From Paraphysoderma sedebokerense (taxonomy: Eukaryota; Blastocladiomycota; Physodermatomycetes; Physodermatales; Physodermataceae), in contig JAHLJZ010000009.1 in NCBI GenBank assembly GCA_025602915.1, positions 488,233 to 552,232 on the forward strand: a stretch of DNA of 64,000 bases. The letters are read 5' to 3'. The position numbers were made by a program, and so were the translations under genes. This document shows positions 11,722-57,800 of this stretch, one piece after another; the stretch's first letter is position 1; every line of letters starts with the position of its first letter. Below the pieces are notes generated by a model. The model saw only the letters and a program-made list of their open reading frames with translations, did no database searches and was not told the origin of the DNA.

Positions 11722-14250
11722 CTACAACGAAAAGTTTGCTCTCTTTCCTTTAACTTCTGACACTTGTCTCTCCTGCACCAAGTCTTTCAACTCTTCCATC
11801 CTCTGCTTTGCTCTTTGATCTCCGCGTTTACTGGCCTCTACGTACAACTTAACAGCTTTATCTAGATCGCGCTCTACAGCTAAGCCTGACTCGTACAATT
11901 TACCCAAATTGAAAATCGCTTTCGCAAATCCATTCTTCATAGCTTTGGCATACCATTTTTTGGCTTCATTCGGATTTGGTTCCGCGCTTATTGCCCCGAT
12001 TTCGTGTAATTCACCTAGAGCGTTCTCCGCGATTGGATTGGAAAATGTGGTAGCCGCGAGGAAGTAAAAATGGCTCGATAACTTAAGATTTTTGGGGATT
12101 CCCCGTCCGTGCAGTGCCATTTCTGCAGCTTTAATCATTGCCTGAGAACGGAAAGAGATTTAGTCAATTCAGAGAAAATGATTATCAATCACAACTTTAC
12201 CAACCTTCTCGTGCCCTTTTTCAGCTGCCATTTTGTAATACTGAAATGCAGACCGTTGATCGGCTATAATGCTGAATGGAAGTAAATCTGAGGGGAGAAA
12301 AGTATCGATCGTCGGTACAGATCCTAAGAGTGCACTATGGTTGCCTTTTGAACCATTCTCATACAAAGCACCTAAATTATAAATTGCGTCGACTGAACCG
12401 AGCGACATTGCCAAATTAAACAGCTGAAATGCCTCGAAAACATTGTTCTTTCAGAGGTGTAAGTAAGCACTAGCGAAGCCAAGAGTGACAGAAAATAGCA
12501 ACACACTTCAACTAAAAACATGTATCCAAGATTGTTTGTTCCGCTGGCATGACCTCTCTCATGTGCACTCTTGTACCATAATTTCGCCAGTACATAGTCT
12601 CTGGCCACACCTCTACCTTCCTCGTAGCAAATGCCTAAGTTGTTCATAGCAGCAGCATTTCCTTGCTCTGCCGCCTTTCTAAATTCTTGTGCGGCCTTTA
12701 AATAATCCTGCGAGCATCCTATTCCTTTATATAATAATCCTCCTAAACAATTTTGCGCTCGAGCATAACCTTGATTTGCAGCGAGAGAATACCAGTGATA
12801 AGCCTTTTCAGAATCAATGTTAATCGGAGATGGGCCTGCTTCTAAGAGGTTGCCGAGACATGTCATTGCTTCTAAATCACCCAATTCCGCAGCTTTCAGA
12901 TACCATTCAGAAGCTTTACTAAGGTCCCTTTCCAAACCGATACCGTGCTCATATAATCGTCCGAGTGCTGTACATCCCTGTTATGAAAGAATATACATAT
13001 TCAAAATTGCGTTGACTGTTGAATTAGTCACCTTTCTTCAGATCGAAGAAAAAATAAATGCACACGACGAATCTGAACAACATACCTCAGCCGAGTTTCT
13101 CTCCGCTGCCATTTTATACCAATAAACCGCCATAGAGAGATCACTTGAATGGCCTATTCCATATTCGTACAAAGCTCCCAACATAACACAAGCCGGCGCG
13201 TATCCGTTTTTAGCTGCCAGGTTATATCGTTTTAAAGCGATTTCTGGAGACTTGGTAACGCCATATCCGAAAAGATGTTTATCTCCTTGAGTACACAATT
13301 TGACTGCATCATTGGGATCTAAGACTGAAGAGGATAATGATCAAATGCGAATGAATATGGTGTTAAAGTGGACAGGGAGCAACCTGCAGAATATTACCAT
13401 CCCAGTCAGGGTGACCTTGTGCTATCGCTAATTTCGCAACATTGCCTGACGCCTGCGTAGCCGCTTGAGATGATTTTGTGGCCATAGTCATCGTCAGAAT
13501 CATGAACTTTGAGGAATATGAATTAGCCAACGCTATTGCCTCTTCTCTGAACGGTACCTTCTCTAACCCTCTACGGTTTGCCTGATTAGATTGAAACAAT
13601 ACACACCATACGATTCCAGCATTCCTTTACTTCACTTAGCCTTCGGTCTAACTTCCTCTTCTTTGAGTAACTTGGCAAGAAGGACGAGTTTTTCAAAATA
13701 GTTAGCTTGTTGTTTAATTTCGTGATTGCGACATGGAAATCAAACATGGCACTGTTAAGAGTATTTTCGACTGATTGATATGTTTGTAGATCATGTTGGT
13801 GGAGGAGAAAAATATCCTATCATGTGTTAAGGAACAATCAAGAAAGAGCGTGCATTTTATGTTTTCGATTGGTTTCAGACAGTATGAGTGATGTTAATTT
13901 AATTAATAGAATTGAATGGTGTTAGACGATGCAAACTACTTTCGGAGCAAAATAGTCAATTTAAATCGATTGCCAACCTTGATTTCCGTCAGCTGTTTTA
14001 AAACTCGTTCATCTTCCTTCCCGCTTAAACCGATAACATTGGCATTCAAACAGACTTGTATCAACAAAGCTGTTGTATCTTCCAAGGAAACTCCCGTTGA
14101 TATCAGATGATCATAAACGTCTGCTGAGGGAGTAACAGGCGAGTTTGGTGTTGTTGGAGAATACGCAAGTGTTGGACTACGTGGTGTGTTGAAGATCGCC
14201 GTATTGGGAGATGCAGGGCTGGCAGACGTTTTTATCCTTAGATGTGACAT
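11722..14250 (-). CDS. Sel1-repeat (TPR-like solenoid) protein
   Basis: Minus-strand multi-exon gene. Repeats of the Sel1 pattern AxxxLGxxYxxGxGVxxDxxKAxxWYxxAA dominate 13310-11722, for example YNLAAKNGYAPACVMLGALY, WYLKAAELGDLEAMTCLGNL, FRKAAEQGNAAAMNNLGICY and AIFNLGKLYESGLAVERDLD. Eight or more repeats are visible, interrupted by short introns. The last exon starts near 12141 and ends at the stop at 11722. The N-terminal part (14250 to about 13363) has a Ser/Pro-rich leader, then a helical region with RRLSE joined to ANRRGLEKVPFREEA across a 54-bp intron. Splicing of the first intron (about 13935-13750) is uncertain. Sel1 proteins scaffold complexes, as in Skt5/Chs4-type chitin-synthase activators or ER-associated degradation; which applies here is not decided. 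Confidence 0.85.
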
Positions 14251-18005: not shown

Positions 18006-18216
18006 TCATTCACAATATACTATCAAGAAATATCATGTGGAGCTGTGTATGATAACTATAAAAAGTATTATTGCAACATTTAATGTTTACTTGCTTCTGT
18101 GCAAGCAACGCATATGTACACAATAATCAATGATATATTCATAAGTCGCTTACAAAAGTTACATATAAAATAGCCAGTATAGATGGACTTGTCTGTCGTC
18201 TGAGACAATTGAATGT

Positions 18217-19117
18217 TCAGTTTAGGGCCCCGACTTTCGATGCAGTTGCATTTGAATGGTTTTTGCTTGTGTGATTGCCGCCCGATTGAGGACTAAGTCT
18301 GGTGGATAAAATTTCTTTGGATACCTGACGCGTCACGAAAATGTAGTCCTTGAACACAGTGATAGCGACAAAGTTGCCTGCGGTATTTTGGAAAGAAAGA
18401 AATAACGTGGGCTGCGCTGTTAAGGGCAAGATAATACCAACTATTCTGCAAACAACGAAGAATGAATTGATGAAAGTGTTGAATACAAGATTGCCTGATT
18501 CACTAGGTCTGTTACGAATGAAGTTCAAAATGCTTTGCTGTCGGTGGAAAGCGAGGGTATAGACAAATGACACTGATAAGATAAGGTTGGCAACAATATA
18601 CAAGAGGGTTCCAACAGTAGTACATATATTTAGAGCCTGGTAGTAGCGCATTGTATCAGATAAGAAAGCTAGATATAATATTTGAGGAATGACAAGAATG
18701 AGTGGACCCATATATTTGACGGCCTGCAAGTAAATCTTGGGAATGGCGAGACGATTTCTTAATGCCAAGGCTCTTTCGATTAGGATTGAATATAAGCAGT
18801 ACGCGGAAATCATCCAGAACCAACCGGCCACTTCGAATGGGGCTGTAGAAGCTCCTGTTGGCATTTGAATGACTACCGAACTCAGACCAAAACCGACACA
18901 TGAGAAGAGACCAGTCACAATAGTGGAGAATAGAACTCGATTTTTTCGAAAGCCGTAAAGGTCCGAGGAGGTTAGAACATTCATAAAGCTCGATTTTTTC
19001 GAAAGCCGTAAAGGTCCGAGGAGGTTAGAACATTCATAAAGCAGTTTATTGTCATGCCGGCAAAGATGCTAGCCATTGCAGCTTTTTGCAACGAAATGAG
19101 CGGATAAAGGGTTGCCA
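18217..19117 (-). pseudogene. Seven-transmembrane protein copy 1, disrupted by a 53-bp tandem duplication
   Basis: Compared with the intact copy at 22824-23666, the frame should start at the ATG at 19117 (MATLYPLISLQKAAMASIFA). It runs through DLYGFRKNR and then hits a stop, because 53 bp are duplicated in tandem at 18936-19041 and 53 is not a multiple of three. The remainder is open down to 18217, and an internal ATG at 18984 could give a 255-residue protein missing the first transmembrane segment. The upstream TATA-like element (TTTTATA at 19172-19178, i.e. TATAAAA on the coding strand) is preserved. The disruption could be real decay or an assembly error. Nucleotide identity to copy 2 looks near-perfect through the body of the gene. 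Confidence 0.82.
18936..19041. repeat. Perfect 53-bp tandem duplication inside 7TM copy 1
   Basis: The segment at 18936-18988 (beginning CTCGATTTTTTCGAAAGCCG) is repeated directly at 18989-19041. The unit contains the T-homopolymer where copy 2 has lost one base. It shifts the reading frame of the minus-strand gene. Confidence 0.9.
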
Positions 19118-19334
19118 TTGTTTTTGGGTGTACTGTTCGACTTGCGATATAGAGACATGGCCGCGAAGAGATTTTATATCAAGAGAGACTGTGACTAGGA
19201 GAAATAAAAGAAACTTCGACGGGGAATTTCAGGCAAAGGTCATTGTTCTGTTGAAATGTCACGGCCCAAAAGGGTAAGGCAAATTCAGTGCAAATTCTCT
19301 CTTGTTTTCGCGCACCTAACGATTCTGGAATCTG

Positions 19335-20180
19335 GAGCCAGGTGTGTCCTGTGTTGTCAGTGTGTACTGTGTTGTCGCCAATTGTCAACATTCTAGAATA
19401 TTGGGGAGGCAATTTCACCGTCGCGACTCGCGAGTGCCCACCGCCACCACATTCTTTCACGGATTTCTGTGAACGGTTAAAAACTTCGAACAACGGTTAA
19501 TTATAGCTCGTCAGAGCCGTGCTGAAATAGTAGTTTCTATATTCTATTCTATTCAACATGAGAGATAGTGACAAATTATGCGACAATCTCGTCAACTGTT
19601 TGTTCCATGTACTATAACGATTCCCTCAAATTCAGAAACAAATTTTTTATGATACTAGTAATAAATTAGAAAGCTTTCCGAAACACATTGAACGCATTAA
19701 GTGCGGTCAATTCCGAAATATTTTTCAGCAATGTAACGCTGCATGAGGTGCTCCTAAACCAGAACTGCAGTTTCACTGTTAATTTAAGATACTGATACTT
19801 TTATTATTTGAAAAATTTAATGAATGTCAATGAACACTGTCTCAGTTATTTGAAATTAAAGTTGCCCCGAGAAGTTTTGATGATTTCTTATATTCCCAAT
19901 GTTAAGTTATGGGTGCGAGTGGTATCACTCATAGTATCAAATTTAATAAATTAAATTGCGGGTATATTTTTATATACATGAGGGTTCTTTTTTTCGTCGG
20001 TAAGAAACAGTATGTCCAACATTATTTTAACAAGTATCACTTCGTTGGTGATTGAGGGCACTCCGTGGGCAAGACATCTTTCAGTTCAAACTTTTCACGA
20101 GCGAATGTAAATGATGGCATTGCTCAACACATTTTTTACGGGCAATAAGTCTTTTCGAACGGATTAATTAATGAAAATAA
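19335..20180. repeat. Intergenic block, orientation A (inverted relative to 21635-22485)
   Basis: The reverse complement of 21635-22485 aligns along this block. Landmarks in order are: GTGTGTT/GTGTTGTCG near 19370; CAATTTCACCGTCGCGA at 19410-19426; GAACAACGGT near 19487; AGCTCGTCAGAGCC near 19506; the TATTCTATTCTATTCAAC run near 19540; AAGTGCGGTCAATT near 19699; TCGGTAAGAAACAGTATGT near 19997; AGTTCAAAC..TTTTCACGAGCG near 20085; and TTTTCGAACGGATTAAT near 20152. The flanks on both sides are in direct orientation in both units, so the block itself is what is flipped. Identity is visibly lower than in the gene copies. I see no transposase gene, no long terminal inverted repeats and no target-site duplication. 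Confidence 0.78.
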
Positions 20181-20345
20181 ACCCTGTCCGTTTTCGTCCG
20201 TTTATGTTGTCGATTGTTTGGGTGCTCTGGAAGAGCCTTGTGGCCTGTGCATTTGTGTCTGTGACTTTTGCCATACAGCGATAATAAATATCGATATAAA
20301 TTGAAGAATGTGTCATCTGGTGTGTTAGAAAGACCGAATACAATA
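20181..20345 (+). promoter_or_regulatory. Orphan copy of the intact 7TM gene's upstream region
   Basis: Directly repeats 22486-22676: both contain CCTGTCCGTTTTCGT, CTGTGCATTTGTGTCTGTGA, GATATAAATTGAAGAATGTG and TCATCTGGTGTG in the same order. Here the promoter-proximal part and the coding sequence are absent; the sequence runs into the 3' flank of 7TM copy 2 at about 20366. It is probably a duplication remnant without function. Confidence 0.7.
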
Positions 20346-20574
20346 CATCATTTGGTAACTAGAAATCACAATATCCATCAAGAAATAATATGTGGAGTTG
20401 TTTATGGTAATAATAAAAAGTATTATTGCAACTGCATCATTTAATGTTCACTTGCCTCTTATGTCAAGAAACGCATATATAGTCAATAGTCAATGATATA
20501 TTGATCAGCGGCTTACAAACATATAAAATAGCCAGTATAGATGGACTTGTCTGTCGTCTGAGACAATTGAATGT

Positions 20575-21422
20575 TCAGTTTAGGGCCCCGACTTTCGATG
20601 CAGTTGCATTTGAATGGTTTTTGCTTGTGTGATTGCCGCCCGATTGAGGACTAAGTCTGGTGGATAAAATTTCTTTGGATACCTGACGCGTCACGAAAAT
20701 GTAGTCCTTGAACACAGTGATAGCGACAAAGTTGCCTGCGGTATTTTGGAAAGAAAGAAATAACGTGGGCTGCGCTGTTAAGGGCAAGATAATACCAACT
20801 ATTCTGCAAACAACGAAGAATGAATTGATGAAAGTGTTGAATACAAGATTGCCTGATTCACTAGGTCTGTTACGAATGAAGTTCAAAATGCTTTGCTGTC
20901 GGTGGAAAGCGAGGGTATAGACAAATGACACTGATAAGATAAGGTTGGCAACAATATACAAGAGGGTTCCAACAGTAGTACATATATTTAGAGCCTGGTA
21001 GTAGCGCATTGTATCAGATAAGAAAGCTAGATATAATATTTGAGGAATGACAAGAATGAGTGGACCCATATATTTGACGGCCTGCAAGTAAATCTTGGGA
21101 ATGGCGAGACGATTTCTTAATGCCAAGGCTCTTTCGATTAGGATTGAATATAAGCAGTACGCGGAAATCATCCAGAACCAACCGGCCACTTCGAATGGGG
21201 CTGTAGAAGCTCCTGTTGGCATTTGAATGACTACCGAACTCAGACCAAAACCGACACATGAGAAGAGACCAGTCACAATAGTGGAGAATAGAACTCGATT
21301 TTTCGAAAGCCGTAAAGGTCCGAGGATGTCAGGATATTCATAAAGCAGTTTATTGTCATGCCAGCAAAGATGCTAGCCATGGCAGCTTTTTGCAGCGAAA
21401 TAAGCGGACAAACAGTTGCCAT
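20575..21422 (-). pseudogene. Seven-transmembrane protein copy 2, disrupted by a 1-bp deletion
   Basis: The frame starts at the ATG at 21422 (MATVCPLISLQKAAMASIFA) and is nearly identical to copy 1. At about 21299-21303 the T run is five bases, where copy 1 has six. This turns FRKNR into FRKIEFYSPLL followed by a stop. The rest is open to the stop at 20575, and an internal ATG (21276) could give 233 residues without the first transmembrane helix. The coding-strand TATA-like element seen in copy 1 is CATAAAA here (TTTTATG on the plus strand at 21470-21476). A homopolymer sequencing error would create the same picture. Confidence 0.8.
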
Positions 21423-21634
21423 TGTTTTTGAGTTCGACTTGCGATATGGGGAGCAGGGGAGTGAAGAGGTTTTATGCCGTAATAGACTGGGACTACGAGA
21501 AGTGAAAGAAAATTCTATTGGACATTGAAGGTACAGGGTTCATTGTTCCGTTGAAATGTCACGGCAGCAGGAAGATAGGGGTAAGGCAAATTCTCTCTTG
21601 TTTCCGCGTAGCAAACGGTTCTGGAACCTATCTA

Positions 21635-22485: not shown

Positions 22486-22823
22486 CAAGACCACCCCTGT
22501 CCGTTTTCGTGCGTTCATGTATTTCGATTGTTTGCGAGCTCTGGAAGGGCCTGGTGGCCTGTGCATTTGTGTCTGTGACTTTTGGCATACTGCAGAGTGC
22601 AGTCATTCTGCGATAGTAACCGATATAAATTGAAGAATGTGTCATCTGGTGTGGTCAAAACCGAATACAATACCTCAATTGTTGTTCATTTTCTTTTGTG
22701 CGCTGGTATTCGGGCGTTTTCTATAATTCCCCGTTTCTAATAGAAATACCCGGATATATAAACCAGTTACATCCGTTACTCTACCTTTGCATAACCCGTT
22801 CTTCAATTGCTTAATTCACAAGA
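22486..22823 (+). promoter_or_regulatory. Promoter of the intact 7TM gene
   Basis: Upstream region of the intact gene. A consensus TATA box, TATATAAA, lies at 22755-22762, about 62-69 bp before the ATG at 22824. A further GATATAAAT at about 22622 is also in the orphan copy at 20181-20345, but the proximal TATA is not. Confidence 0.6.
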
Positions 22824-23666
22824 ATGGCCACAATTTGTCCACTCCTTTCCCTGCAAAAAGTTGCAATGGCCAGCATTTTTGCTGGTATGACGATTAACTG
22901 TTTTATGAATATCGTCACATCGACAGACTTGTACGGTTTCAAAAAAAACCGTATTCTCTTCGCCACCATCGTGACAGGTCTTATTTCTTGCGTGGGGTTC
23001 GGTATTGCGTCCGCCACAATTCAAATGTCAACATTGGGTTCAGTATCCTATCAAATAGCCGGCTGGTTTTGGATGCTTTCCGCTTTCTGTCTTTATTCCG
23101 TCTTATTCGAAAGAGCTCTAGCTTTACGAAACAGAATTGCTGTTTCCAAGGCGACCCTCTTGGTAGTCAGATACTTGGGTCCCATCTTGTTTACTATTCC
23201 ACAAATGCTTTATATTGTCTTCCTATCCGACCCATTTAAATATTACCAAGCTCTGAACGTATGCACAACTCTCGGAACCATTATGTATATTGTCGCCAAT
23301 TTAGTTTTATCTGTTTCATTCGTCTACACCCTCGCCGCCCACCGAGAAGAAAGTATCCTCAATTTCATCCGCAATCGACCCGGTGAATCTGGTACCCTCA
23401 TTTTGAACGCTTTCGTTACTTTAGTCTTTGTTATTTGTCGATTAATTGGTATCGGTATGCCACTTGTATCGCAACCCACACTATTTATTACTCTCCAAAA
23501 TACAATGGGTAATTTCGTCGCTATTACAATGTTCAAAGACTACATTTTCGTGACGCGACAAGTATCAAAAGAAATTCTCGCTTCAAAATTGACTCCTCAA
23601 TCCGGTGGTTCTCACAACTCAAAGAATCAAAACCCTGCTTCGTCTCGTGTAACTGCCGCTAGCTGA
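22824..23666 (+). CDS. Seven-transmembrane membrane protein, intact copy
   Basis: Uninterrupted single-exon frame of 280 residues. Seven hydrophobic helices can be placed at about 12-30, 44-68, 77-96, 112-135, 148-172, 190-213 and 218-243. The ends are short, with a polar Ser/Asn-rich tail after about 255. Conserved between the three copies are MASIFAGMTINCFMN, AGWFWM, ERALALRNR, YYQALN and the segment KDYIFVTRQVSKEIL after the last helix. The seven-helix count is reminiscent of receptor-like proteins, but I see no rhodopsin retinal lysine motif, DRY motif or other GPCR signature and do not recognise the family. Copies 1 and 2 are about 70-75% similar by eye and broken, so this may be the only functional member here. 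Confidence 0.88.
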   Translation: MATICPLLSLQKVAMASIFAGMTINCFMNIVTSTDLYGFKKNRILFATIVTGLISCVGFGIASATIQMSTLGSVSYQIAGWFWMLSAFCLYSVLFERALALRNRIAVSKATLLVVRYLGPILFTIPQMLYIVFLSDPFKYYQALNVCTTLGTIMYIVANLVLSVSFVYTLAAHREESILNFIRNRPGESGTLILNAFVTLVFVICRLIGIGMPLVSQPTLFITLQNTMGNFVAITMFKDYIFVTRQVSKEILASKLTPQSGGSHNSKNQNPASSRVTAAS

Positions 23667-27312: not shown

Positions 27313-28501
27313 TTCTGTGGATATGGATATGGATGAGGGTTGAGGAAGATAACTTTTGGGCCGTTGCGATGGCTGTATACGGTACAGAAATGGAAGTGGT
27401 GAACGGGTTTGCCGCTGGTTCACCAGTCAAATGAAAATTGGTTCACCCGTTCACAGTCCCATTCTTGTCGCATTCTTTGCTGCTTGTCCGAAATGTCGCA
27501 CAATCAAACAACTGACAATCCTCGCCCTCGCTCACCACTCTAAGCACGCAGATGCTGTAGTGATGGTATCCAATGGATACGCTATAGACTACTTTTGGAT
27601 CTCCTTTGATGCATTATCGACGGCAGCATCATCAACAGACAAACAGCTGACGCTATTTGGGATTCCAGATCGATCTTTGCGACCTGGATCATCATCAACT
27701 GCCAGGTGACTCGTTGACACAAATCCAACAATTATTGTGGATGCATAGCTTTACTTTTTGTGTGCATTATTAACCAGCATCTATTTTTTATTTGTGTGTG
27801 GTAGTGGCAGTGCAGATCTGTTCAGCTGGTTAGTGGTACCAATGCAGTGCACAGGTATAGAGTCCAGCCAGCTCCACCAATACAGTACAGATTGACAGGC
27901 TGGGCACATGGACAGCAGTTGAAGAGGTTGTAGAGTAAGGGGCACAGTTTATTAGATGAGTTGACAAAGACAGGTATACTCTTTAGTGACAAAGATGGAA
28001 TGCAGGGGCAACAGGAGTCAGTAGCAGGAGTCAGCAGAAGGAGCCAGTAGGGAGGTCAGGAGCAAGAGGGGTGTTGAGTGGCGAGCGAGAAGGGGATGAT
28101 GAGGGGGTGCAAGGACAAAGAAGAGCCAGTGCAGTGCAGACTGCAGAGAGAGGAACCAAAGGGAACAAGCGAACTAAGGGAGTGACTGGGAGGAGGGGAT
28201 CAACGCGTCCTGAAGTCTACCAGCTGAGCAGCAACTTACCTGCAATGACTTCTACCACCTGCACAGACAGCCCATGCGCACTGGCCATTGTGTGCAGACA
28301 ATGGGGGCCACGCGGGGGTGTTTGTTGCGAGAGAGCACCGAGCTGGCCTAGGAGCTCCCTCTCGCTCCATCCGACGACTCCCATTCTCTCTGGACTCACA
28401 CACTCCCTTTATCCTCCGCCCCTATTCTCCACCACAACAAACATCTATTATTCCACAAACCATCCCTCCTCTAAACTTCTTTTCCTATCCCACCCTTCCC
28501 C
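27313..28501. other. Intergenic region with purine-rich imperfect repeats
   Basis: About 1.2 kb between divergent ArfGAP and HMG-box genes. At about 28012-28060 there are imperfect direct repeats of CAGGAGTCAGYAG within a G/A-rich stretch running to about 28200. This is unlike the AT-rich surroundings and probably belongs to the promoter or 5' UTR of the HMG gene. Open frames through it (27356-27709, 28071-28652) show no domain and look accidental. Confidence 0.45.
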
Positions 28502-30567
28502 ATGGAGAACCCTCCCATCGACATCGTCCCCGCCGACGACCTCTCCGCCTCAGCTCAGCTCCCTTCCACTGATTCTTCCTCCCCCAATTCCCACTCGGTC
28601 GCTTCCTCCGTCGTCAAAAATGAAACCCCAGAAATCAACACTGACGACCTAGGCGACCTCGCTGAATTGGCCGCTAAAATGGTCTCCGAATTCGCTTCCC
28701 TCAGAAGCTCAAAGAAGAGACCTCCCAGACCCCCAAATTCTTACATCTTGTTTCGTAAGGTAATTCTGCTCGCCCTCATCGTCGAGAACTGGGCTTTTTT
28801 TTGCTTCTTATCCTGTATTGGTTTTTGTTTTGTCACACTTCTTCATCTTCTCTCTTCCATAAACTCTCTTTGGAATGTAAAGAATTTTACTAAACATTAC
28901 TTGTTTCCTCTGTTATCCATCCAAATTCTCCGCTACATTTGCGTTGCGTTTCCATAAAAAAAAATTTCATCTCTTTTGCCTCCTTCACTACCAACAACCA
29001 ATTGATAACCGCACTCAGGATAAACAACCCGAGGTATTAGCAAAATACGGAGGTATTGCCAATAATGAAGTGTCAAAAATTGTCGGTGAAATGTGGAGGA
29101 ATGCTTCCTTTGAGGAAAAAGAGAAATACAATAAGGTAAGGAGCTTTTTTTTTATTTCAAATTTCTTGCTTTCTACTTTTGTCCTTGCTTTTCTCTTCAG
29201 ACAAAAACTATTAAATGCTAGTTTGGAATAATTTTTGCTGGATGGGAAATTTCATTCAATGCCTTTGTTTGGGGGGCATTGTTTGCCAGACTAAACTCTT
29301 ATTTTACGTATACAATTGAGTATTGTCAGCTTTACGCTTTTGTCCCTATGTGTTTAATTTTTTTATGTTTATTCGTATTTGTTATGCATGTCGCGGGTTT
29401 GCATCCCAGCGAGCCTGTCGGGTGTCGTGAGCCTTTGTTAACCCTCATTCCCCCTTCCCGTATTTTTTTTCGCTTTTGCTCTTTCGCTCACAACCTTTTT
29501 AGCTATCGAAAGCTGTCAAAGAAGCACATGCCAAGATGTACCCCGACTACAAATATCAACCTCGTAAGACTAAAAAGAAGAAGGGTAACATGATGTTTGA
29601 CGGAATGCCAGGACAACCCATCATGGGTGGCAATCTCGACATGCTTGTTTTGGCGTCCGAGTATCCACAGTCTCACTATGGCCAACCGCATCCACACGCC
29701 CAACATCCCCATCCTTACGGTCAAGTCCATCCGCAACACCCACATGCCGCTGCTCATCACGCTCAGATGCATGGTTACCCATCTCATCCAGGACATCCTC
29801 ATATGATGCCGCCGTCGACCGGTGCCTCCACTTCCATGGCTATGGGCGCCTATGACCAACATCGTCGTGAGTCTGTCGGTAACCAGATGCCTCAAGGATA
29901 TCCTCCCGCATCGGGTGGCCAACCTTGGATGCCATTGGGGTACGGGGACGCTTCGTCAACTGGTGAAGTTGGAGTCAACCAACCTTACTTTGCTTCCGGA
30001 CCCGCCCCAAATTATTCCACTCAACACGCCGGCCAGCAACAACAACAGCAGCAGCAGCGTCAACAACAATCCGGTGAGATCACATACTCTCAATCACAGC
30101 AACATCCCACCTCTCAACAACTGCAAATCCAGCAGCATCAGTTTCCCGGTGGCTCGCAGATTTCCCAGTCTTCTGGATCAAATACCTACTCTCCTATTGA
30201 CCCGTCTTCTGTGAATTCTCCTTCTCACTCGTCGTCGCAACCGCATTCGTCATCTCAGACGCCCAACATCAACAATCAAAACTATAAAGCCAAATCCCCT
30301 CCTCGTCAATCCAACGCCAACCCATCCCAAGGGCAAAGCTCTCCCCGCCAACAGCAACAAGGTGGTCAACAGCAGCAACAACAACAACAACAACAATATA
30401 TGGACATGCCGCAAGTCGACTTTTCCGGTCTTCCCGCCATGTCAAACGGCATGGGAGTGAAATCTGGTGGGTACTATCCAATGCAGTCACAGCCAGGTGG
30501 CGCACAACAAGGAACTGGTAGCCCCGGTGCGGCTGGAAACAATAACGGTGGCGGTTTCCGCTATTAA
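28502..30567 (+). CDS. HMG-box transcription factor (MAT/Ste11/Rox1-like box) with His- and Gln-rich tail
   Basis: Three exons (28502-28759, 29019-29135, 29503-30567) give 479 residues. The HMG box spans about residues 74-145 across both introns. It opens with KKRPPRPPNSYILFRK, continues through SKIVGEMWRNASFEEKEKYN and closes with AHAKMYPDYKYQPRK, the sequence-specific (SOX/TCF/MATA) type rather than the tandem HMGB type. Downstream is a basic KKKK stretch, then a histidine-rich region at about 183-226 with HPHP/HPQH repeats, and two glutamine tracts at about 303-312 and 400-423, consistent with an activation or condensate-forming region. Fungal proteins of this type regulate mating or morphogenesis; the exact orthologue cannot be named from sequence alone. 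Confidence 0.9.
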
Positions 30568-33287: not shown

Positions 33288-33594
33288 GTTCCTTTGGTTT
33301 CGGTATAAAATTAATATATTTCTTCCCACTCCTCAAGCAAAGGATCTGACGCTTTGCCCTGCTGTAGATTACTATTTTTGACCTGCCGTAAATATTCTTG
33401 GGTGGTGTGTTCTGTGGAGTCTTCTATTTTCATTGTTATTAACGCGCCCGGTAACAGTGAAAATAATTGCGGCATACTAATTTTGGAAGTGTCCTGTTTC
33501 TATTCTTACAATCTGGAACTGACACCCGAAAATTCCAGGGTTCACTGTATAGACCTTTTTTGATAGACTGCAACATTACAGTACATCCTCTAAC
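33288..33594. promoter_or_regulatory. Divergent promoter, coiled-coil gene / vWA-GTPase gene
   Basis: 307 bp between the two opposite start codons, so both promoters must overlap here. No TATA or E-box stands out. Confidence 0.4.
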
Positions 33595-36248
33595 ATGCGA
33601 ATAAGTGCGGAGCAGCTTGATATCCTGGAAGATGGGGAGGCCATGGGTGCCATGACCCCCTTGCCAATGAGAGTCACTGCAAAGGAAAATTTCGCCGAAA
33701 ATCAGGATGTCATCATTGTATGTTTCTTTTTAACACTTTATTGAATCATATTTATTCACTTGATATTTTCAATTAGATGGTGGACGGGTCTGCGTCTATA
33801 AACCGCACTGATTTTCAAAAAATGAAACAACTGTGTGGAGCTCTTGCGCAACGTTTTACTGGACAAGCAAGTCAGTTGGGATTAGTACAAGTCGGTGATA
33901 GCGCAAGAGAAGAACAATGTTTAACGACGGATCGTAGTCTCTTCGACAGTAAAGCTTTAGGTAATTCATAATGAATTTTAGTCTTTCCCGCAATTCAAAA
34001 TACATAACCCTGTCCAATTTGTTAAATTGTAGCAATGCTGCAGATGCGCGGGGGTACAGACATTTTGGCAGGCCTACAGTTATGTGCTCAAGCGTTCACC
34101 CATTCCAGCTTGCCGAATAATGGGAAGCAACTCTGGATATTCACCGACGGTGTGTACACTGGTGGCGATCCTACTCCTTTTGCCAGAGAGCTTCAAAGGC
34201 AGGTACGTTCATTTTATCATTCTCAAAGAATATCCATATGAGTCAATAAGTGATTTTAAATTTATGATTCAGGGTGTTCTCATCACCGCGATTGGAATAG
34301 GCTACGGAATTACGCAGGAAACCTTAGAGAATGTGGCCTCATATGGCAGAGCCTTCTGGAAAGAAGATTTTGATAAAGCCGTGGAATTTATTTCAAGCGG
34401 TATTACTCCCAATCTGCAGCAGGAGCTTACGCATCTCCAAGTATTTTTAGAAAATTCAATGAATAAAATTGGCTACGATGTTTCGTTCCTGTTAGAGGTA
34501 CAATGTTATTTCAATGTTATTTCCAAAATCAACATAAATCATCACTAACCCAAATTATTATGGTCATCCTACCAGATCACGAATAATACCGAGCAATCTA
34601 TTCCTTCTCAGTCTTGCGTATATATTCCACAAACCCAATATTTCAACGCTCGTCGTATCATCTTGCCGCGCGAAATACATCCATATCAAAAATGGCAAAC
34701 GCCATTCGTGTTAGAATGTAAAAACTCAAACATCAAGAATAAATTTCATGACTGGATCCTCAAGTTACCGCAAATTATTGAAATTTACTTATGTGATTCG
34801 ACGGGAAATTGGATTCCCACGAATGAAAATGGGTTCGAATTATCAATAGGTAAGTGTCTGGCGTGGTCAAGGGGGTCAAAGGTGAAGATTGCATGAGCTG
34901 ATAGATTTTTGGCCTTTTAAAGATAAATTCGCAGGCGACGTGATTGAATGGAGACCTTCCGATGCAAGGACACCGGATGCAAATATCCTCTTGTTTGGAC
35001 CACAAGGATCCGGCAAGGTGAGATACGCTTTGTTAGTAGTTAGAATGAATATGGTATCACCGCCAACACTGCTTTACTGACTTTTAATTAGAGTTCTTTT
35101 GTTAATTCAGTTTTCACTGCACTTTCAGAGAATGTACAAGAACTTAGTATTGCCGGAGGAGGTAGTAGTCGTATTACAACTCGCTTAGAGCGCTTCCCTA
35201 CTTCTATCGCTTTAGGAGATTACGACGCCGGCTCCGCAAAGATAAATTTCTTCGATTGCCCGGGTATCGAGGAGAATGATGCTACTTATCAAGGCGAAGA
35301 AATTGAAATGATAGTTGAAGGTGTCATGAAAGTAGGAGAAAAAATTGTGAATCAAAAACTGCTTTATTCGGATCTTAGACGTCGAAAAAGACTAAATGAT
35401 AAGGATACGGCTTGGAAACAACGAATTCATTCTGTCATTTTTGTGATTCCGCAACAGTATGCAGCCGATTCCGATCAACAGCAAGATCTCATTCAACCTT
35501 ATGTTGCCATGTATGAGAAATTAAGAAATGAACTAAGTACGAGTTCATTTATTTTCTTCGAAAACTTGTCTACTTGCAATGAAGGAGCGAGAACACTGAC
35601 AATTTTTTCTGCCAAACTACGTAGAGCGTAAAGCAATAGTGGCCGTTTCCCAATTCGACAAAGTAGGCCAAGAAAATGGTAGATTAGTGTTGCAACAAAT
35701 TGCCGATTCGTTTAATATTCCCGTTGACCAAGTTTATCCGCTGATCAACTATTCCTCCGGAATGGCGAAAAATTCTAAACTGTTCGAAATGGATCAAAGA
35801 ACAATTCATATTTTGTATGCTGCACTCCAAGGGGCTTCAAATTTTATGCGGGTGGAAGCATTGGGTCAAGGTACGGCATCAACGTATATCTACTCATTCA
35901 AGAAACGCCACATCTAACTGTTTCGTTCTTGCAGTTGAAAGGTTATTCGATTACGACGATGATGATTTGAGTTATCAGTTCCAACACCAGGTAAACCTAG
36001 ATTCCAGTTCCAGCTCTCAAGGGTCTGCGTCCAACGTCGCGTCCACAACTGAGCTGATGGAAGAGATTTGGACTTTTATGATGGATTTGGTCAATGAAGA
36101 TCTGATAGAACCTGAAGATTTTGAAGCTCTTAAAAACGCGAATGAAGGAAAATTGAGGAGTATCTATAAATCTGCAATGAAAGGTGCATCGGAAGATGAC
36201 AAAATCTATAGATTTTTGCGAGGAGCAAAGCAATTTCAATTACTCTAA
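33595..36248 (+). CDS. von Willebrand A domain fused to an IFI44/AIG1-like GTPase
   Basis: Nine exons (33595-33717, 33777-33960, 34033-34202, 34273-34497, 34576-34849, 34923-35017, 35092-35536, 35625-35870, 35935-36248) give 691 residues. Residues about 39-205 form a vWA domain with the MIDAS motif DGSAS and later FTDGVYTGGD. After a beta-rich linker comes a GTPase: P-loop LLFGPQGSGKSSFVNSV (about 349-364), G3 FFDCPG (411-415), and SQFDKV (514-519) in place of G4 TKxD after a hydrophobic strand. The layout of SRITTRLE, IHSVIFVIP and FNIPVDQVYPLINYSSG resembles the interferon-induced IFI44/IFI44L GTPases more than septins or dynamins. A Ser-rich stretch and a helical C-terminal domain (MEEIWTFMMDLVNEDLIEPE) follow. 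No signal peptide or transmembrane helix is seen, so it is probably cytosolic. The function is not known. Confidence 0.85.
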
Positions 36249-36982: not shown

Positions 36983-39015
36983 CTAATCCAAAACAATCAC
37001 AATCTTTCCGTCTTCCTTAGTAATGATTGTCCCATTATTACTTTTGTCTGCTGCCAGCGAGTTTGTATCACCAGACGCCAAAGTCGAAGCAATATTCGAG
37101 CGTTTTCTCGGCAGTGCTTGATCACATTCTCCATCACTGCATAAATCGATCACCATAGCTGACGCACCTCTCTTGCTTCCGGCAACTTCATACTTTTCGT
37201 TGTCATCTATTATCACGGTCTCGATTCCACGTTTTGAGCCACTCTTACCATGGTCGATTTCGATGGCTTGGGACTTTCTTTGAGGAGCACGACTTGTACT
37301 GCCGTCAGGATTCACCGCTATTTTGTCCTCCTCTGGATATATTTTCAAGCAATGTTTCATGAATGGGTCCATGACTATATCATTTAAACTTTTCAACGTG
37401 GCGTTGCAAGCAATACATTTCCACTTCGATAACGGTTTCTTCACATTAAACTCGATAAAAGGTATGAAATCGAAACATTCGTAATGCGTGCACTTTGTCA
37501 GTTTGGCCGGATGACTCAATCGCTTCATCGTGAGGGGACATTTGAGAGAAACGACTTGTTGTCCAACCTCTAAATCGTCGTCCGCTTTATTCTGCTTGTT
37601 TTGATGATTAAATGAGGAAGAACCGATCGAATAAGTGCGGTCGAATAGAGATTCCATGGCTTTTAAATCAAATTTGGCCTTTTGGTGGATTGAGGTGACG
37701 GTTGCCGGTGATTTGCTTTTGAGATGTTGGTAATATGTTCTGGCAAGTCGAGAATCTGGCGAAAGCTGTCGCGCAAATTCAACGATCAGATGTGCATTCG
37801 ATAACCTATATTTAGGTCCTTGTACATTAATATCGAGAGTCTTCTGGCCTGATAGAAGAGAGCCAAGGTCGACGAAAGGCGTTATGTCCAGGTATGAAGG
37901 GGACGACTTAGCTGAGCTCTGCGGGATTAGGCGACGGTTTACTTTAATGGTAATGGCTTTGTCGAAATGAACCAAGTAAGCTCCGTTCAGCAAGTACACA
38001 TGAATCTGATAAATTGGATCAGTTGGTAATGACTGAGATTCCCTCTGTTTTTTCATTTGAGAAATAATCGGAACGTGACTGGAGTTGATTCGGATACAAG
38101 TGTTCGCATAACTTTCGCTCTTCGAAAGAACAGAAAAACTATGTTTGTGAATTACATATTCAGTAAAGTGATAGGGGGATTGTATCATGGATTTTGCCGT
38201 ATGGAAATTATTTCTCACTGCTCCTGTCAGTATACTAGACAATAACGTTAGGAATAAGGACAACGAAAATATGTAAAGACACCCAAGAGATCTGCTTACT
38301 TCGAGTCAAATTTGATTGGAACCTTTTTTGTGGTGGTCGTCGTCACATTGTTAGAGGAAGTCGTAGGCACCGGGTTCACGGATGAGAGGAGAGGGTAAGA
38401 ATATGGCATATATCCCGTATAAATGTATGGATGATAGGGTGGAAGAGGAAGTACATTTGGGAAAGTGCCACCGTAACCAGCGTTTCCAGGTTTCTCGGCC
38501 GCTTGACTCGCTTTTCTTGTAGCCGCCCTGAAAATAAGGTCAATAGCCAGAAGTTTGAAGTAATACCAAAAGAGTGCATTTACAGCTTTTTGGCATAGTC
38601 CGGGAATATTTTCATTGCCAGTTGGTCCACCAAACCATCCTTTAAGCACATGGTATTGAGGTCATGCATTCCCTTCTTCTCTCTAAGGTAGATCATCACT
38701 TTCTTCAATTCAGGGACAGTTAAGGTGCGCAATGAGCTAACGTCCTGAATACAAGCGAGTTAGAGAATCGTTACTAGCGATCCGAGGATGACTACAGAAT
38801 CGTACCAGAAATTCAAAATAATTTCGGTCTCCGCGAAGGCATGTAGTTTTGATATGCGTTTGCTCTAACAAGATAGCACACAATCAACGAGATTAGTAAC
38901 CAGAGAACTGAAGCAGGAAATATCTACCAAATATACCTTTAGCCGTCAAAATCGTTCTGTTTTCGGGATTTCGTCTACCAGGGATCCCGGCTGTGGACGC
39001 ACTGGGTGCTGTCAT
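36983..39015 (-). CDS. SIZ1: SIZ/PIAS-type SUMO E3 ligase
   Basis: Five exons (39015-38937, 38864-38806, 38744-38584, 38527-38300, 38234-36983) give 592 residues. A SAP-like DNA-binding segment lies at about 47-95 (SSLRTLTVPELKKVMIYLRE). A Pro/Tyr-rich linker follows, then a PINIT domain at about 185-335 with IYQIHVYLLNGAYLVHFDKA. The SP-RING (MIZ zinc finger) at about 408-453 has CPLTMKRL, CTHYECFD and WKCIACN, which recruits Ubc9 charged with SUMO. The C-terminal tail carries hydrophobic SUMO-interacting motifs: VIDLCSDGE at about 537, TVIIDDNE at about 515, and IVIVL directly at the C-terminus. This domain order is that of fungal Siz1/Pli1 and animal PIAS proteins, nuclear ligases acting on chromatin and repair proteins. 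Confidence 0.93.
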
Positions 39016-54876: not shown

Positions 54877-57800
54877 ATGCCAGGTAAAACCGCTAACGCG
54901 GGCCCTTGTTTACTGTTACTCATTGCCCCTGTATTCAACCATTAGCCCTTTTCTAACGTTTTTTCGTCTCCGTCTCCTATGCTGTTGATGTCTAAAAGCC
55001 GGAAGAAAACGAAAGGTTCCGGAGAGTTTAGTGGATACTTGCACGAATTTGCAGGATTCCTCAGAGAGCAAAGATGACACGTCCGTTCATCAAGACTCGA
55101 TCGCTTCGCCAGTGAGTTCCACTAGACGATCGACGAGAAACATAGAACGGAATAACACTGTTCAGAGTAATTCAAGCAAGGAAGCAGAAGGTATTTGAAT
55201 CGTTTCAGCTTCTCGATTAAAATGTGACCGCGAAATGGTTCATGAGAACAGCGGTGGCTGGACAGGCGCCGTACTGGAATAACCAGCGCGTGAATGAGAA
55301 ATCGACAGTTTGCTTAGGCCGTAGCCTTAGAGTTCTGGATTTATCACCATAGATGGGCTGCTCTGACAGGATTCATTACATTCACTCCTATCCTTCAGAA
55401 GACGACAATGCAGACGAATTGTCCGAGCCGCCGTCGGATTCCTCATCGGATTCTGAAAATTCCGACTTCGAAGAAACTGAACGCCAAACTCGCACACCGC
55501 AGAGCACTACTAAGAGAGCGACGGTTTCTTCAACATCCGCTGTTGATGCGGATGGATTCAAGATTCCAGTAATAAAGCAAGCTCGATCGCGAGGACCAAA
55601 GCCCAGAGTAGCAGTGGATCCTTCGGATATTGGAGATGATTTGTGGGGTTAGTCGTCAATCTATCACCGCCTTATTGATTTCTTGTATTCTTATTCGCTA
55701 ACAATCATCAATTGGCTGAACACTTGTAGCGGCAGTGCAGCATCCTAATATATCCATCGCCTCACTTGTGTCAGACTGGCTCAGCTCATATTCTAGTGGA
55801 GGAAATGGCACGCAAGGTGAACTCACGGAAGCCAAGGGTGAAGCCCTTTTGCGCTTAGTTAATATGATCATTAAGGTGCATGGTTATTGATTCGTTATGT
55901 CAATTTCCGATTGCTGACAAATTTTCAGGCAACTGGTTGTCCAGGATCATTAAATAAGCAACAATTTGAAGACCAAGACTCCGTCGCCGACTGGCTTGAA
56001 GAATTACAGGGACATTTCGACCCGGTAAAGCAATTCGTTATTTCTGCCTGCTTATCTCTATTATTATTAAACCAATCTTTGGTATTTTCTCTGAAGAATG
56101 CATCGCCCGACATTGGATTGTTTTCCGGCAAAGCGACGACCACTAAACGTCATCCCAAGAATAAGATCAAGAAAGCTTTTCTGGAGTTTTTTGACAAACT
56201 CTTTGCCAGCATAAAATCCGAAGTACTCTTTGATGAGGTTTTAGTGGACGTTTTGAGCAACTGGGTGGTCGCAATGTCTAGGTGTGGCCTTTGTTTGACA
56301 TCACCTTATCGGTTTCTCAAATAACCATAATGACACCCATTAGCTCCGCCTTCCGCCCGTTTCGTATAACTGCAGCGACCTTATCACTTCATATACTCAC
56401 TATTCTTTGTGGAATCGCTTCTGACCTAAATACTGAACACAACATGCTTTCTCGACAACTCAGCACCGAAGTAAAAAAATCCGGTTCTACCAAACTTAAC
56501 AAGAATGAGCGAGTGAGAACGCTTGATCTCAGAGTTCGAAAATGTCATGATAGAAAAGTAGCATGCGAGGGTTTGATCAATGGATTATTCGATTCGTACG
56601 TTGCAGTCTTCTATCTGTAGTGCTGGCTGATGAAGAGGTCTAACATGCAATCACATTAGTGTGTTTGTGCATAGGTATCGTGATATTGAACCGTCTATTC
56701 GCCAACAGTGTATCACGTCGTTGGGAACGTGGATTGCAAGATATCCTGATCATTTTCTTGAGGCAACTTACTTGCGATACATTGGCTGGATGTTGAGTGA
56801 CAAGGTATGTTGAAATGGTACTGTTGTCCCGTATGCATACGTAGTTAACTGATGTCAACCAATTTCGTCCCCTAGAATCCGGCTGTACGCACGCAGGCGA
56901 TCAACTCCCTGTTAACTCTTTATCAAGATGACCGATACGCCAGCGGCTTACGATCTTTCACGGAAAGATTCAAACCTAGATTGTTAGAATTGGCGATGGA
57001 AGAAGTAGCTGAAACTGTTAAATCAACCGCCCTATCCTTGTGCAGTCGGGTTGCCACGTACGGATTATTCGAAGATGACGATCGATTGAATTTATGCGTC
57101 ATGGCATTGTCCAATTCTTCAAAGATTCGTCACGATATTGCTCCCTTAGTCAAGCAAGTTTTCGAGGAAGATTTTCTCGAAGAAGCTGTTAGTCATGCAC
57201 AACAAGTTTTTACATCTTCCACCTCGCCGTATGAAATTGATGACAGTGAAGCGGAAAAATTTGTTTCGTTCAAAGCGCTGGCAAAGTTTATGATAAGAGT
57301 GTCGAAGCGATGTGATAATCTTGTGAAAGGAGAAAATGATATGAATCCCGAGGAAAGTGATGAAGAGAATGATGAATCTGATGAGCTACCCAAAGGTGTT
57401 CCGGTCGGTCAGATGAAAAAAGAAAAAGGAGGACACGTTGCTGCTTTCGTTGATGGCTTGTGGTCTGAACTAGAGTTGATTCAGGTTCGTAACACCTTGT
57501 TTAACAGTAAAGGAAACTCACTCAATGGCTAACTAACAATTACCGAATATAGGACTATTCCTCTCTTGCGACATTTCTTTCAACCGATTTCACTTGCCCG
57601 GATACTGACTCCCCGACAGCGACACAGTCTGACTCGGTGTTATCCCTATCCCCTGCTGAGGAAAAGACACTTCTTACCCTTCTTAAATTCCAAGTGAAAA
57701 AAATAACTTCGGCCGAACCTCTTTTCCCGGGCGCTGCTACGGTGCCATCAGCGAAATCTACTCGAAAACGACATGAAGTAGATTACGTCGAGACGAAACA

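What the first reader, a model, noticed from the sequence alone, without database searches (positions are those of the whole stretch)
33595..36248. vWA domain fused to an IFI44/AIG1-like GTPase
A MIDAS-bearing vWA module (DGSAS) is followed by a P-loop GTPase with GPQGSGKSS, DCPG and SQFDKV and a C-terminal helical domain. IFI44-like GTPases are best known as interferon-induced animal proteins. A fungal member joined to a vWA metal-dependent adhesion module is unusual and could be a stress, membrane or innate-defence-like machine.
Basis: partly seen in the sequence, partly recalled or inferred. Interest (0 to 1): 0.75.

Follow-up and report, generated by a model that had tools for sequence, protein, structure and literature searches.

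The report
Fungal-like vWA–IFI44-type GTPase fusion gene
A eukaryotic, probably fungal, gene joins a metal-dependent protein-binding module to a GTP-switch module resembling the animal interferon-induced protein IFI44; the parts are known, but this combination may be new, and its role is untested.

Summary
Window 33595-36248 (+) reads as one nine-exon gene with eight GT-AG introns of 59-88 nt. Its 687 residues hold a vWA domain with the MIDAS residues (Pfam VWA E 2.2e-21), an unassigned ~130-residue linker, a P-loop GTPase in canonical motif order (P-loop 347, DCPG 408, SQFD 510) and a four-helix tail (single-sequence AlphaFold2, pLDDT 91.8). Exons 5 and 6 hold no in-frame ATG, and exon 7's first lies beyond DCPG, so two separate genes are very unlikely.

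AIG1, Dynamin_N and Septin fall below their Pfam cut-offs. The GTPase scores 25.8 bits against recalled human IFI44L, versus 14.6 for the best solved-structure sequence. The similarity is strongest at the P-loop. No TLDc match, IFI44's other region, was listed. It is an IFI44-like GTPase in a different protein, not IFI44.

vWA-GTPase pairings have precedent: cpRAS-VWA in animals and protists (PMC2430557) and vWA systems with AIG GTPase effectors in bacteria (PMC7159879). A defence role is inference. Eukaryotic genomes could not be surveyed, no full-length structure was possible, and the organism is unidentified. New variant of a known kind.

The parts
33595..33717 (+). exon 1 (residues 1-41), start ATG; first in-frame ATG after the stop at 33550
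33777..33960 (+). exon 2: start of vWA, MIDAS DGSAS at residue 44
   Evidence: Pfam VWA residues 38-195
34033..34202 (+). exon 3: vWA centre, GGTD (from residue 109) and FTDG (from residue 139), the presumed MIDAS threonine and aspartate
   Evidence: the MIDAS roles are recalled family knowledge
34273..34497 (+). exon 4: end of vWA and start of linker in one continuous frame
34576..34849 (+). exon 5: linker, residues 235-325; no Pfam family (best E 0.18)
34935..35017 (+). exon 6: start of GTPase, P-loop GPQGSGK (residue 347), no in-frame ATG
35092..35536 (+). exon 7: rest of P-loop (SS), DCPG (G3, residue 408), KQRIHSVIFV stretch
35625..35870 (+). exon 8: SQFD (G4 position, residue 510), NYSS (presumed G5 position, residue 543)
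35935..36248 (+). exon 9: end of GTPase, acidic and serine-rich spacer, four-helix tail (modelled piece 36036-36245), stop

Best explanation
One soluble protein of 687 residues. The vWA domain uses its Mg2+-bound MIDAS to hold an acidic peptide of a partner protein. The IFI44-like GTPase next to it is the nucleotide switch that sets the protein's shape or self-association, and the four-helix tail is an adaptor surface. The most likely role is an intracellular, GTP-gated assembly or threshold switch in a stress or invader response, working like (but not belonging to) the bacterial vWA + AIG-GTPase systems. Shown here by sequence: the single gene model, the vWA with its MIDAS residues, the P-loop GTPase motifs, the similarity to (recalled) IFI44L, the predicted helical tail, no strong membrane-spanning stretch. 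Inferred: metal and peptide binding, GTP binding, the switch action, the stress or defence role. My estimates: about 0.85 for a vWA + IFI44-like GTPase fusion in one gene, about 0.4 for the switch mechanism, about 0.25 for a defence role.
For: Spliced frame open over nine exons; no start codon for a separate GTPase; vWA E 2.2e-21; IFI44L 51.6 bits BLASTP and 25.8 bits phmmer, E 5.7e-5 when scaled to 177,635 sequences, against 14.6 bits for the best of 177,635 solved-structure sequences; alignment with both recalled proteins ungapped at the intron 7 and 8 junctions; maximum 19-residue hydropathy 0.87; helical tail pLDDT 91.8. Precedents: bacterial MoxR-vWA iSTAND systems with an AIG GTPase effector (PMC7159879, passages); IFI44 named among shared antiviral-response genes in a Nematostella study that compares with Stylophora (PMC13319465, passages).
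Against: No functional data. The IFI44 sequences were recalled, not fetched. Similarity is strongest at the P-loop and residues 363-455 are not above shuffles. In the blind six-frame check, IFI44 ranks the right ORF third with no significance. AAA profiles score as high as GTPase profiles in Pfam (AAA_16 22.7 against MMR_HSR1 22.0 bits). G4 reads SQFD rather than N/TKxD. IFI44 and IFI44L restrict RSV independently of their predicted GTP-binding region (PMC7459546). The exon 7 model failed (pLDDT 37.6). None of the neighbouring ORFs scanned, 13 of the 27 other ORFs of 150 or more residues plus one of 148, suggests a defence setting.
Confidence: 0.45

Rival explanations
1. A housekeeping scaffold: a septin/TOC/GIMAP-like GTPase whose vWA domain anchors a trafficking or organelle complex, with no link to stress or defence.
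For: Best solved-structure hit of the GTPase is Toc34, 14.6 bits, E 0.15; weak Septin (19.0) and AIG1 (13.8) Pfam scores for the domain; cpRAS-VWA proteins of unknown function occur in protists and a few animals (PMC2430557, passages).
Against: Recalled IFI44L scores 25.8 bits, above every sequence in the solved-structure search.
Confidence: 0.3
2. A degenerate GTPase: the P-loop is kept, but SQFD means it does not bind GTP selectively, and the domain is a structural or ATP-binding scaffold.
For: G4 lacks the usual N/T and K; AAA_16 scores 22.7 bits against 22.0 for MMR_HSR1.
Against: P-loop and DCPG are intact and the G4 aspartate is kept; human IFI44 (as recalled) reads THVD at this place and IFI44L TKVD, so a loose G4 would not be unique.
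Confidence: 0.2
3. Two adjacent genes, or an assembly or gene-model artefact, falsely joined.
For: No transcript data; splice sites were chosen by eye; a shorter product could start at the in-frame ATG at 34459 in exon 4.
Against: Continuous frame across nine exons, no start codon for the GTPase downstream of exon 4, alignment ungapped across two splice junctions.
Confidence: 0.05

Closest known systems
IFI44 / IFI44L (animal interferon-induced proteins)
   Same: GTPase aligned over 287 columns at 24% identity, 51.6 bits; shared GPxGxGKSSFxNSV, KxRIHxVxxV and NYxS stretches.
   Different: IFI44 carries a putative, distant TLDc domain (PMC5614904, passage; TLD 17.9 bits, below cut-off 24.5, in recalled IFI44L). 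Here no TLD match was listed; a vWA domain and linker stand in its place and a helical tail follows.
cpRAS-VWA proteins (PMC2430557, abstract and passages)
   Same: A eukaryotic GTPase and a vWA domain in one polypeptide, with scattered distribution.
   Different: That GTPase is a circularly permuted Ras (G3-G4-G5-G1-G2) and precedes the vWA; here the order is canonical and the vWA comes first.
Bacterial MoxR-vWA iSTAND ternary systems with AIG GTPase effectors (PMC7159879, passages)
   Different: Bacterial, with a MoxR ATPase and a third component; such partners were not looked for genome-wide here, and AIG1 falls below its cut-off.
Toc34 / AIG1-TOC GTPases
   Same: Closest solved structure by sequence.
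   Different: Only 14.6 bits, E 0.15; not a significant match.

Membership tests
vWA domain (PF00092) | profile match above curated cut-off | tested here: met
   77.3 bits, cut-off 23.8, E 2.2e-21, residues 38-195
vWA domain (PF00092) | MIDAS residues DxSxS, T, D | tested here: met
   DGSAS 44, GGTD 109, FTDG 139; the roles of the T and D are recalled family knowledge
P-loop GTPase | G1 GxxxxGK[ST] and G3 DxxG in order | tested here: met
   GPQGSGKS 347, DCPG 408
P-loop GTPase | G4 N/TKxD | tested here: inconclusive
   SQFD at 510; only the aspartate is kept
IFI44 family | GTPase domain similar to IFI44/IFI44L beyond the P-loop | tested here: met
   residues 455-600 against shuffles: z 5.2, 0 of 500 (IFI44L); z 3.5, 5 of 500 (IFI44); residues 363-455: z 0.0 and -1.1, no signal. 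Reference sequences recalled
IFI44 family | N-terminal TLDc region | tested here: not met
   no TLD among the 22 families listed up to E 10 nor for the linker; residues 1-325 against IFI44L: 212 of 500 shuffles reach the score
AIG1/GIMAP (PF04548) | profile above cut-off | tested here: not met
   domain alone 13.8 bits, cut-off 27; not listed for the full protein
IIGP/IRG (PF05049) | profile above cut-off | tested here: not met
   not among the 22 families listed for the full protein; for the domain alone 25 of 29 were shown, IIGP not among them
Dynamin_N (PF00350) and Septin (PF00735) | profile above cut-off | tested here: not met
   domain alone: 21.1 of 27 and 19.0 of 26.2 bits
cpRAS-VWA | circularly permuted motif order | tested here: not met
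   order is G1-G3-G4
Bacterial vWA ternary conflict systems | linked MoxR ATPase and third component | not tested
   no whole genome held; only part of the neighbouring ORFs was scanned

The most novel reading that the evidence does not exclude
The IFI44-type GTPase predates animals, and in this lineage it is wired to a vWA sensor instead of TLDc, forming a non-animal innate-immune or stress GTPase switch that mirrors the bacterial vWA + AIG-GTPase conflict systems. The interferon-induced protein of animals would then be a late re-use of an older eukaryotic switch.
Probability: 0.18. Interest if true: 0.65.

Novelty: new variant of a known kind. Interest (0 to 1): 0.42.

Why it matters
IFI44 and IFI44L are familiar antiviral markers in animals whose molecular mechanism is, to my knowledge, unsettled. 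A relative in a probably non-animal genome, joined to a domain whose general way of binding is understood, would offer a comparison for what the GTPase does without interferon, and could date the family before animals. vWA-GTPase pairings in three settings (bacterial AIG systems, cpRAS-VWA, this gene) would suggest a recurring design.

Tried and rejected
Relatives: viral contigs with the GTPase alone (1 pattern stretch, 0 confirmed) and with alignment A1 (371 stretches, 0 confirmed); genome contigs with A1 (274 stretches, 0 confirmed) and with the vWA domain (42 stretches, 0 confirmed). These scans are insensitive for one divergent query: even a vWA domain, common in bacteria (general knowledge), found nothing, so absence from prokaryotes and viruses is not shown. 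Plasmids: 7 records, best E 0.1, all within the first 84 of the 269 query residues. Phages: 11 records, best E 0.03, all within query residues 17-118. NCBIfam: 6 families listed, none near its cut-off, best hCaCC E 3.9e-4 on the vWA part. PADLOC: 6 listed, best Csx3 E 2.5e-4, 18.4 bits, around the P-loop; not taken as assignments. A second copy in the window: none found; the best hit outside the gene has E 0.018. Rfam and tRNA scans of the window: 0 and 0 (ARAGORN ran with the bacterial code).

Structure: exon 7 alone gave pLDDT 37.6 and was discarded. The tail gave 65 Foldseek matches at E 10 or better, 50 shown, best E 0.8, no TM-score (query) above 0.45. Ten of the 50 are described as CARD, including the first; at these scores this is a lead, not evidence. 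Its sequence search gave E 0.13 at best.

Literature: I ran ten paper searches; the lists are capped and I saw titles and starts of abstracts. No listed title or abstract start reported a fungal IFI44 or a vWA-IFI44 fusion. One search found 0 papers holding both 'interferon-induced protein 44' and 'Chytridiomycota'. Only open-licence papers are held, so this does not show that none is in print. Passages only were read of seven papers; PMC8195603 and PMC7016017 added no direct precedent.

Full report
Gene. The start is the first in-frame ATG after a stop at 33550. An additional upstream exon cannot be excluded. Splice sites were chosen by eye and then tested in two ways. First, the frame stays open through all nine exons, while each of the first eight runs into an in-frame stop 9-93 nt past its end if not spliced. 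Second, the alignment with recalled IFI44L and IFI44 has no gap at the intron 7 and intron 8 junctions.

One gene or two. Exons 5 and 6, and the open stretches in front of them, contain no in-frame ATG; exon 7's first in-frame ATG is at 35308, beyond the DCPG motif. The GTPase therefore cannot start on its own downstream of the vWA exons. A shorter product from the in-frame ATG at 34459 in exon 4 (linker plus GTPase) remains possible.

Domains. Residues 38-195 match Pfam VWA at E 2.2e-21, with DGSAS, GGTD and FTDG in place for MIDAS. The best solved-structure matches are collagen VI alpha 3, proximal thread matrix protein 1 and integrin alpha-M. Those are extracellular proteins (general knowledge), but here no 10-residue window in the first 40 residues averages above 0.88 and no 19-residue window anywhere above 0.87 in hydropathy, so a soluble intracellular protein is inferred. 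Residues about 196-325 match no Pfam family (best E 0.18). Residues about 325-600 form the GTPase. The last 70 residues fold confidently into four helices from a single sequence (pLDDT 91.8, pTM 0.80), with no significant PDB match (best E 0.8).

GTPase family. Pfam gives MMR_HSR1 at 22.0 bits for the domain (cut-off 21.9) but 19.3 for the whole protein; AAA_16 scores as high (22.7), and AIG1, Dynamin_N and Septin are below cut-off. Against 177,635 distinct PDB sequences the best score is 14.6 bits, Toc34, E 0.15 (269 residues as query). With phmmer at maximum sensitivity and a query seven residues longer, recalled human IFI44L scores 25.8 bits and IFI44 22.3; scaled to the same library size E is 5.7e-5 and 6.8e-4. 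BLASTP gives 51.6 and 47.0 bits. Split by region against 500 shuffles each: residues 325-600 z 19.9 (IFI44L) and 15.6 (IFI44), 0 of 500 each; 363-600 z 4.5 (1 of 500) and 2.6 (14 of 500); 455-600 z 5.2 (0) and 3.5 (5); 363-455 z 0.0 and -1.1; vWA and linker 1-325 z 0.1 and 0.9; linker z 0.1 and 1.7; tail 600-687 z 2.7 (8) and 1.2 (61). So the family call leans on the P-loop region plus a weaker C-terminal half. A blind check on 1,259 unspliced six-frame ORFs: recalled IFI44L ranks the exon 6 ORF first (11.0 bits, E 0.011), recalled IFI44 ranks it third (E 2.9). Recalled IFI44L has a weak Pfam profile like that of the window GTPase (MMR_HSR1 19.2, AIG1 17.9, Septin 13.3 bits), and its GTPase part has no significant solved relative (best 14.2 bits, E 0.24). 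The recalled sequences were not checked against a database; their lengths and mutual identity agree with published values.

Membership. The G domain looks like an IFI44-type GTPase, but the protein is not IFI44: no TLDc match was listed, and a vWA domain and linker occupy the N-terminal half. By curated cut-offs it is not AIG1, IIGP, dynamin or septin, and not cpRAS, because its motif order is canonical (PMC2430557).

Precedents. [quoted passage not shown] Bacterial MoxR-vWA iSTAND systems carry a GTPase effector of the AIG subfamily (PMC7159879, passages). IFI44 is described as the most distant TLDc protein (PMC5614904, passages) and is named among shared antiviral-response genes in a Nematostella study that compares with Stylophora (PMC13319465, passages). 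Against a GTP-driven defence role: IFI44 and IFI44L restrict RSV independently of the predicted GTP-binding region (PMC7459546, passages).

Mechanism. My most likely reading is a GTP-gated, vWA-tethered assembly switch: the MIDAS holds a partner peptide, the GTPase changes shape or dimerises, and the helical tail recruits a further partner. Only the parts are shown; the action is inferred. SQFD at the G4 position leaves guanine specificity open.

Limits. Prokaryote and virus scans found no relative, but they are insensitive for one divergent query, as the empty vWA scan shows.

Verdict. Interest is 0.42: an unusual pairing whose components and general design have precedents, with no functional evidence. 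It would rise if a survey showed an IFI44-vWA family outside animals.

Noticed in passing
window 18161-21433 and 22815-23666: Two copies of a membrane-protein-like ORF (18217-19068 and 20575-21372, minus strand) share a 300-nt stretch at 100% and a 135-nt stretch at 91%; a diverged inverted copy (71% over 451 nt) lies at 23166-23616. The one copy scanned, 22815-23666, matches no Pfam family. Looks like a recent tandem duplication.
   Followed up: partly
window around 3228: [14 protein letters not shown], which resembles the MutS/MSH P-loop (recalled), in a frame broken by stops; possibly part of an MSH2-like mismatch-repair gene.
   Followed up: partly
window 36983-38305 (-): SP-RING (zf-MIZ) protein, E 5.9e-13, perhaps a PIAS/Siz-type SUMO ligase (name recalled); the next gene downstream.
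   Followed up: no
window 12372-12980 (-): Sel1 repeats, four stretches, E 1.6e-28.
   Followed up: no
window 28475-28957 (+): ORF with RPPRPPNSYILFRK, resembling the start of a fungal mating-type HMG box (recalled); Pfam lists nothing, perhaps because an intron follows.
   Followed up: no
window 56876-57532 (+): Stromalin conservative domain, 27.2 bits against a cut-off of 27.5; perhaps a cohesin SCC3/STAG-like gene (inference).
   Followed up: no
window 36036-36245 (+): The tail of the gene: 10 of the 50 Foldseek rows shown are CARD structures, including the first, but with E of 0.8 or worse and TM-scores of 0.45 or less. A death-fold adaptor is a lead only.
   Followed up: partly
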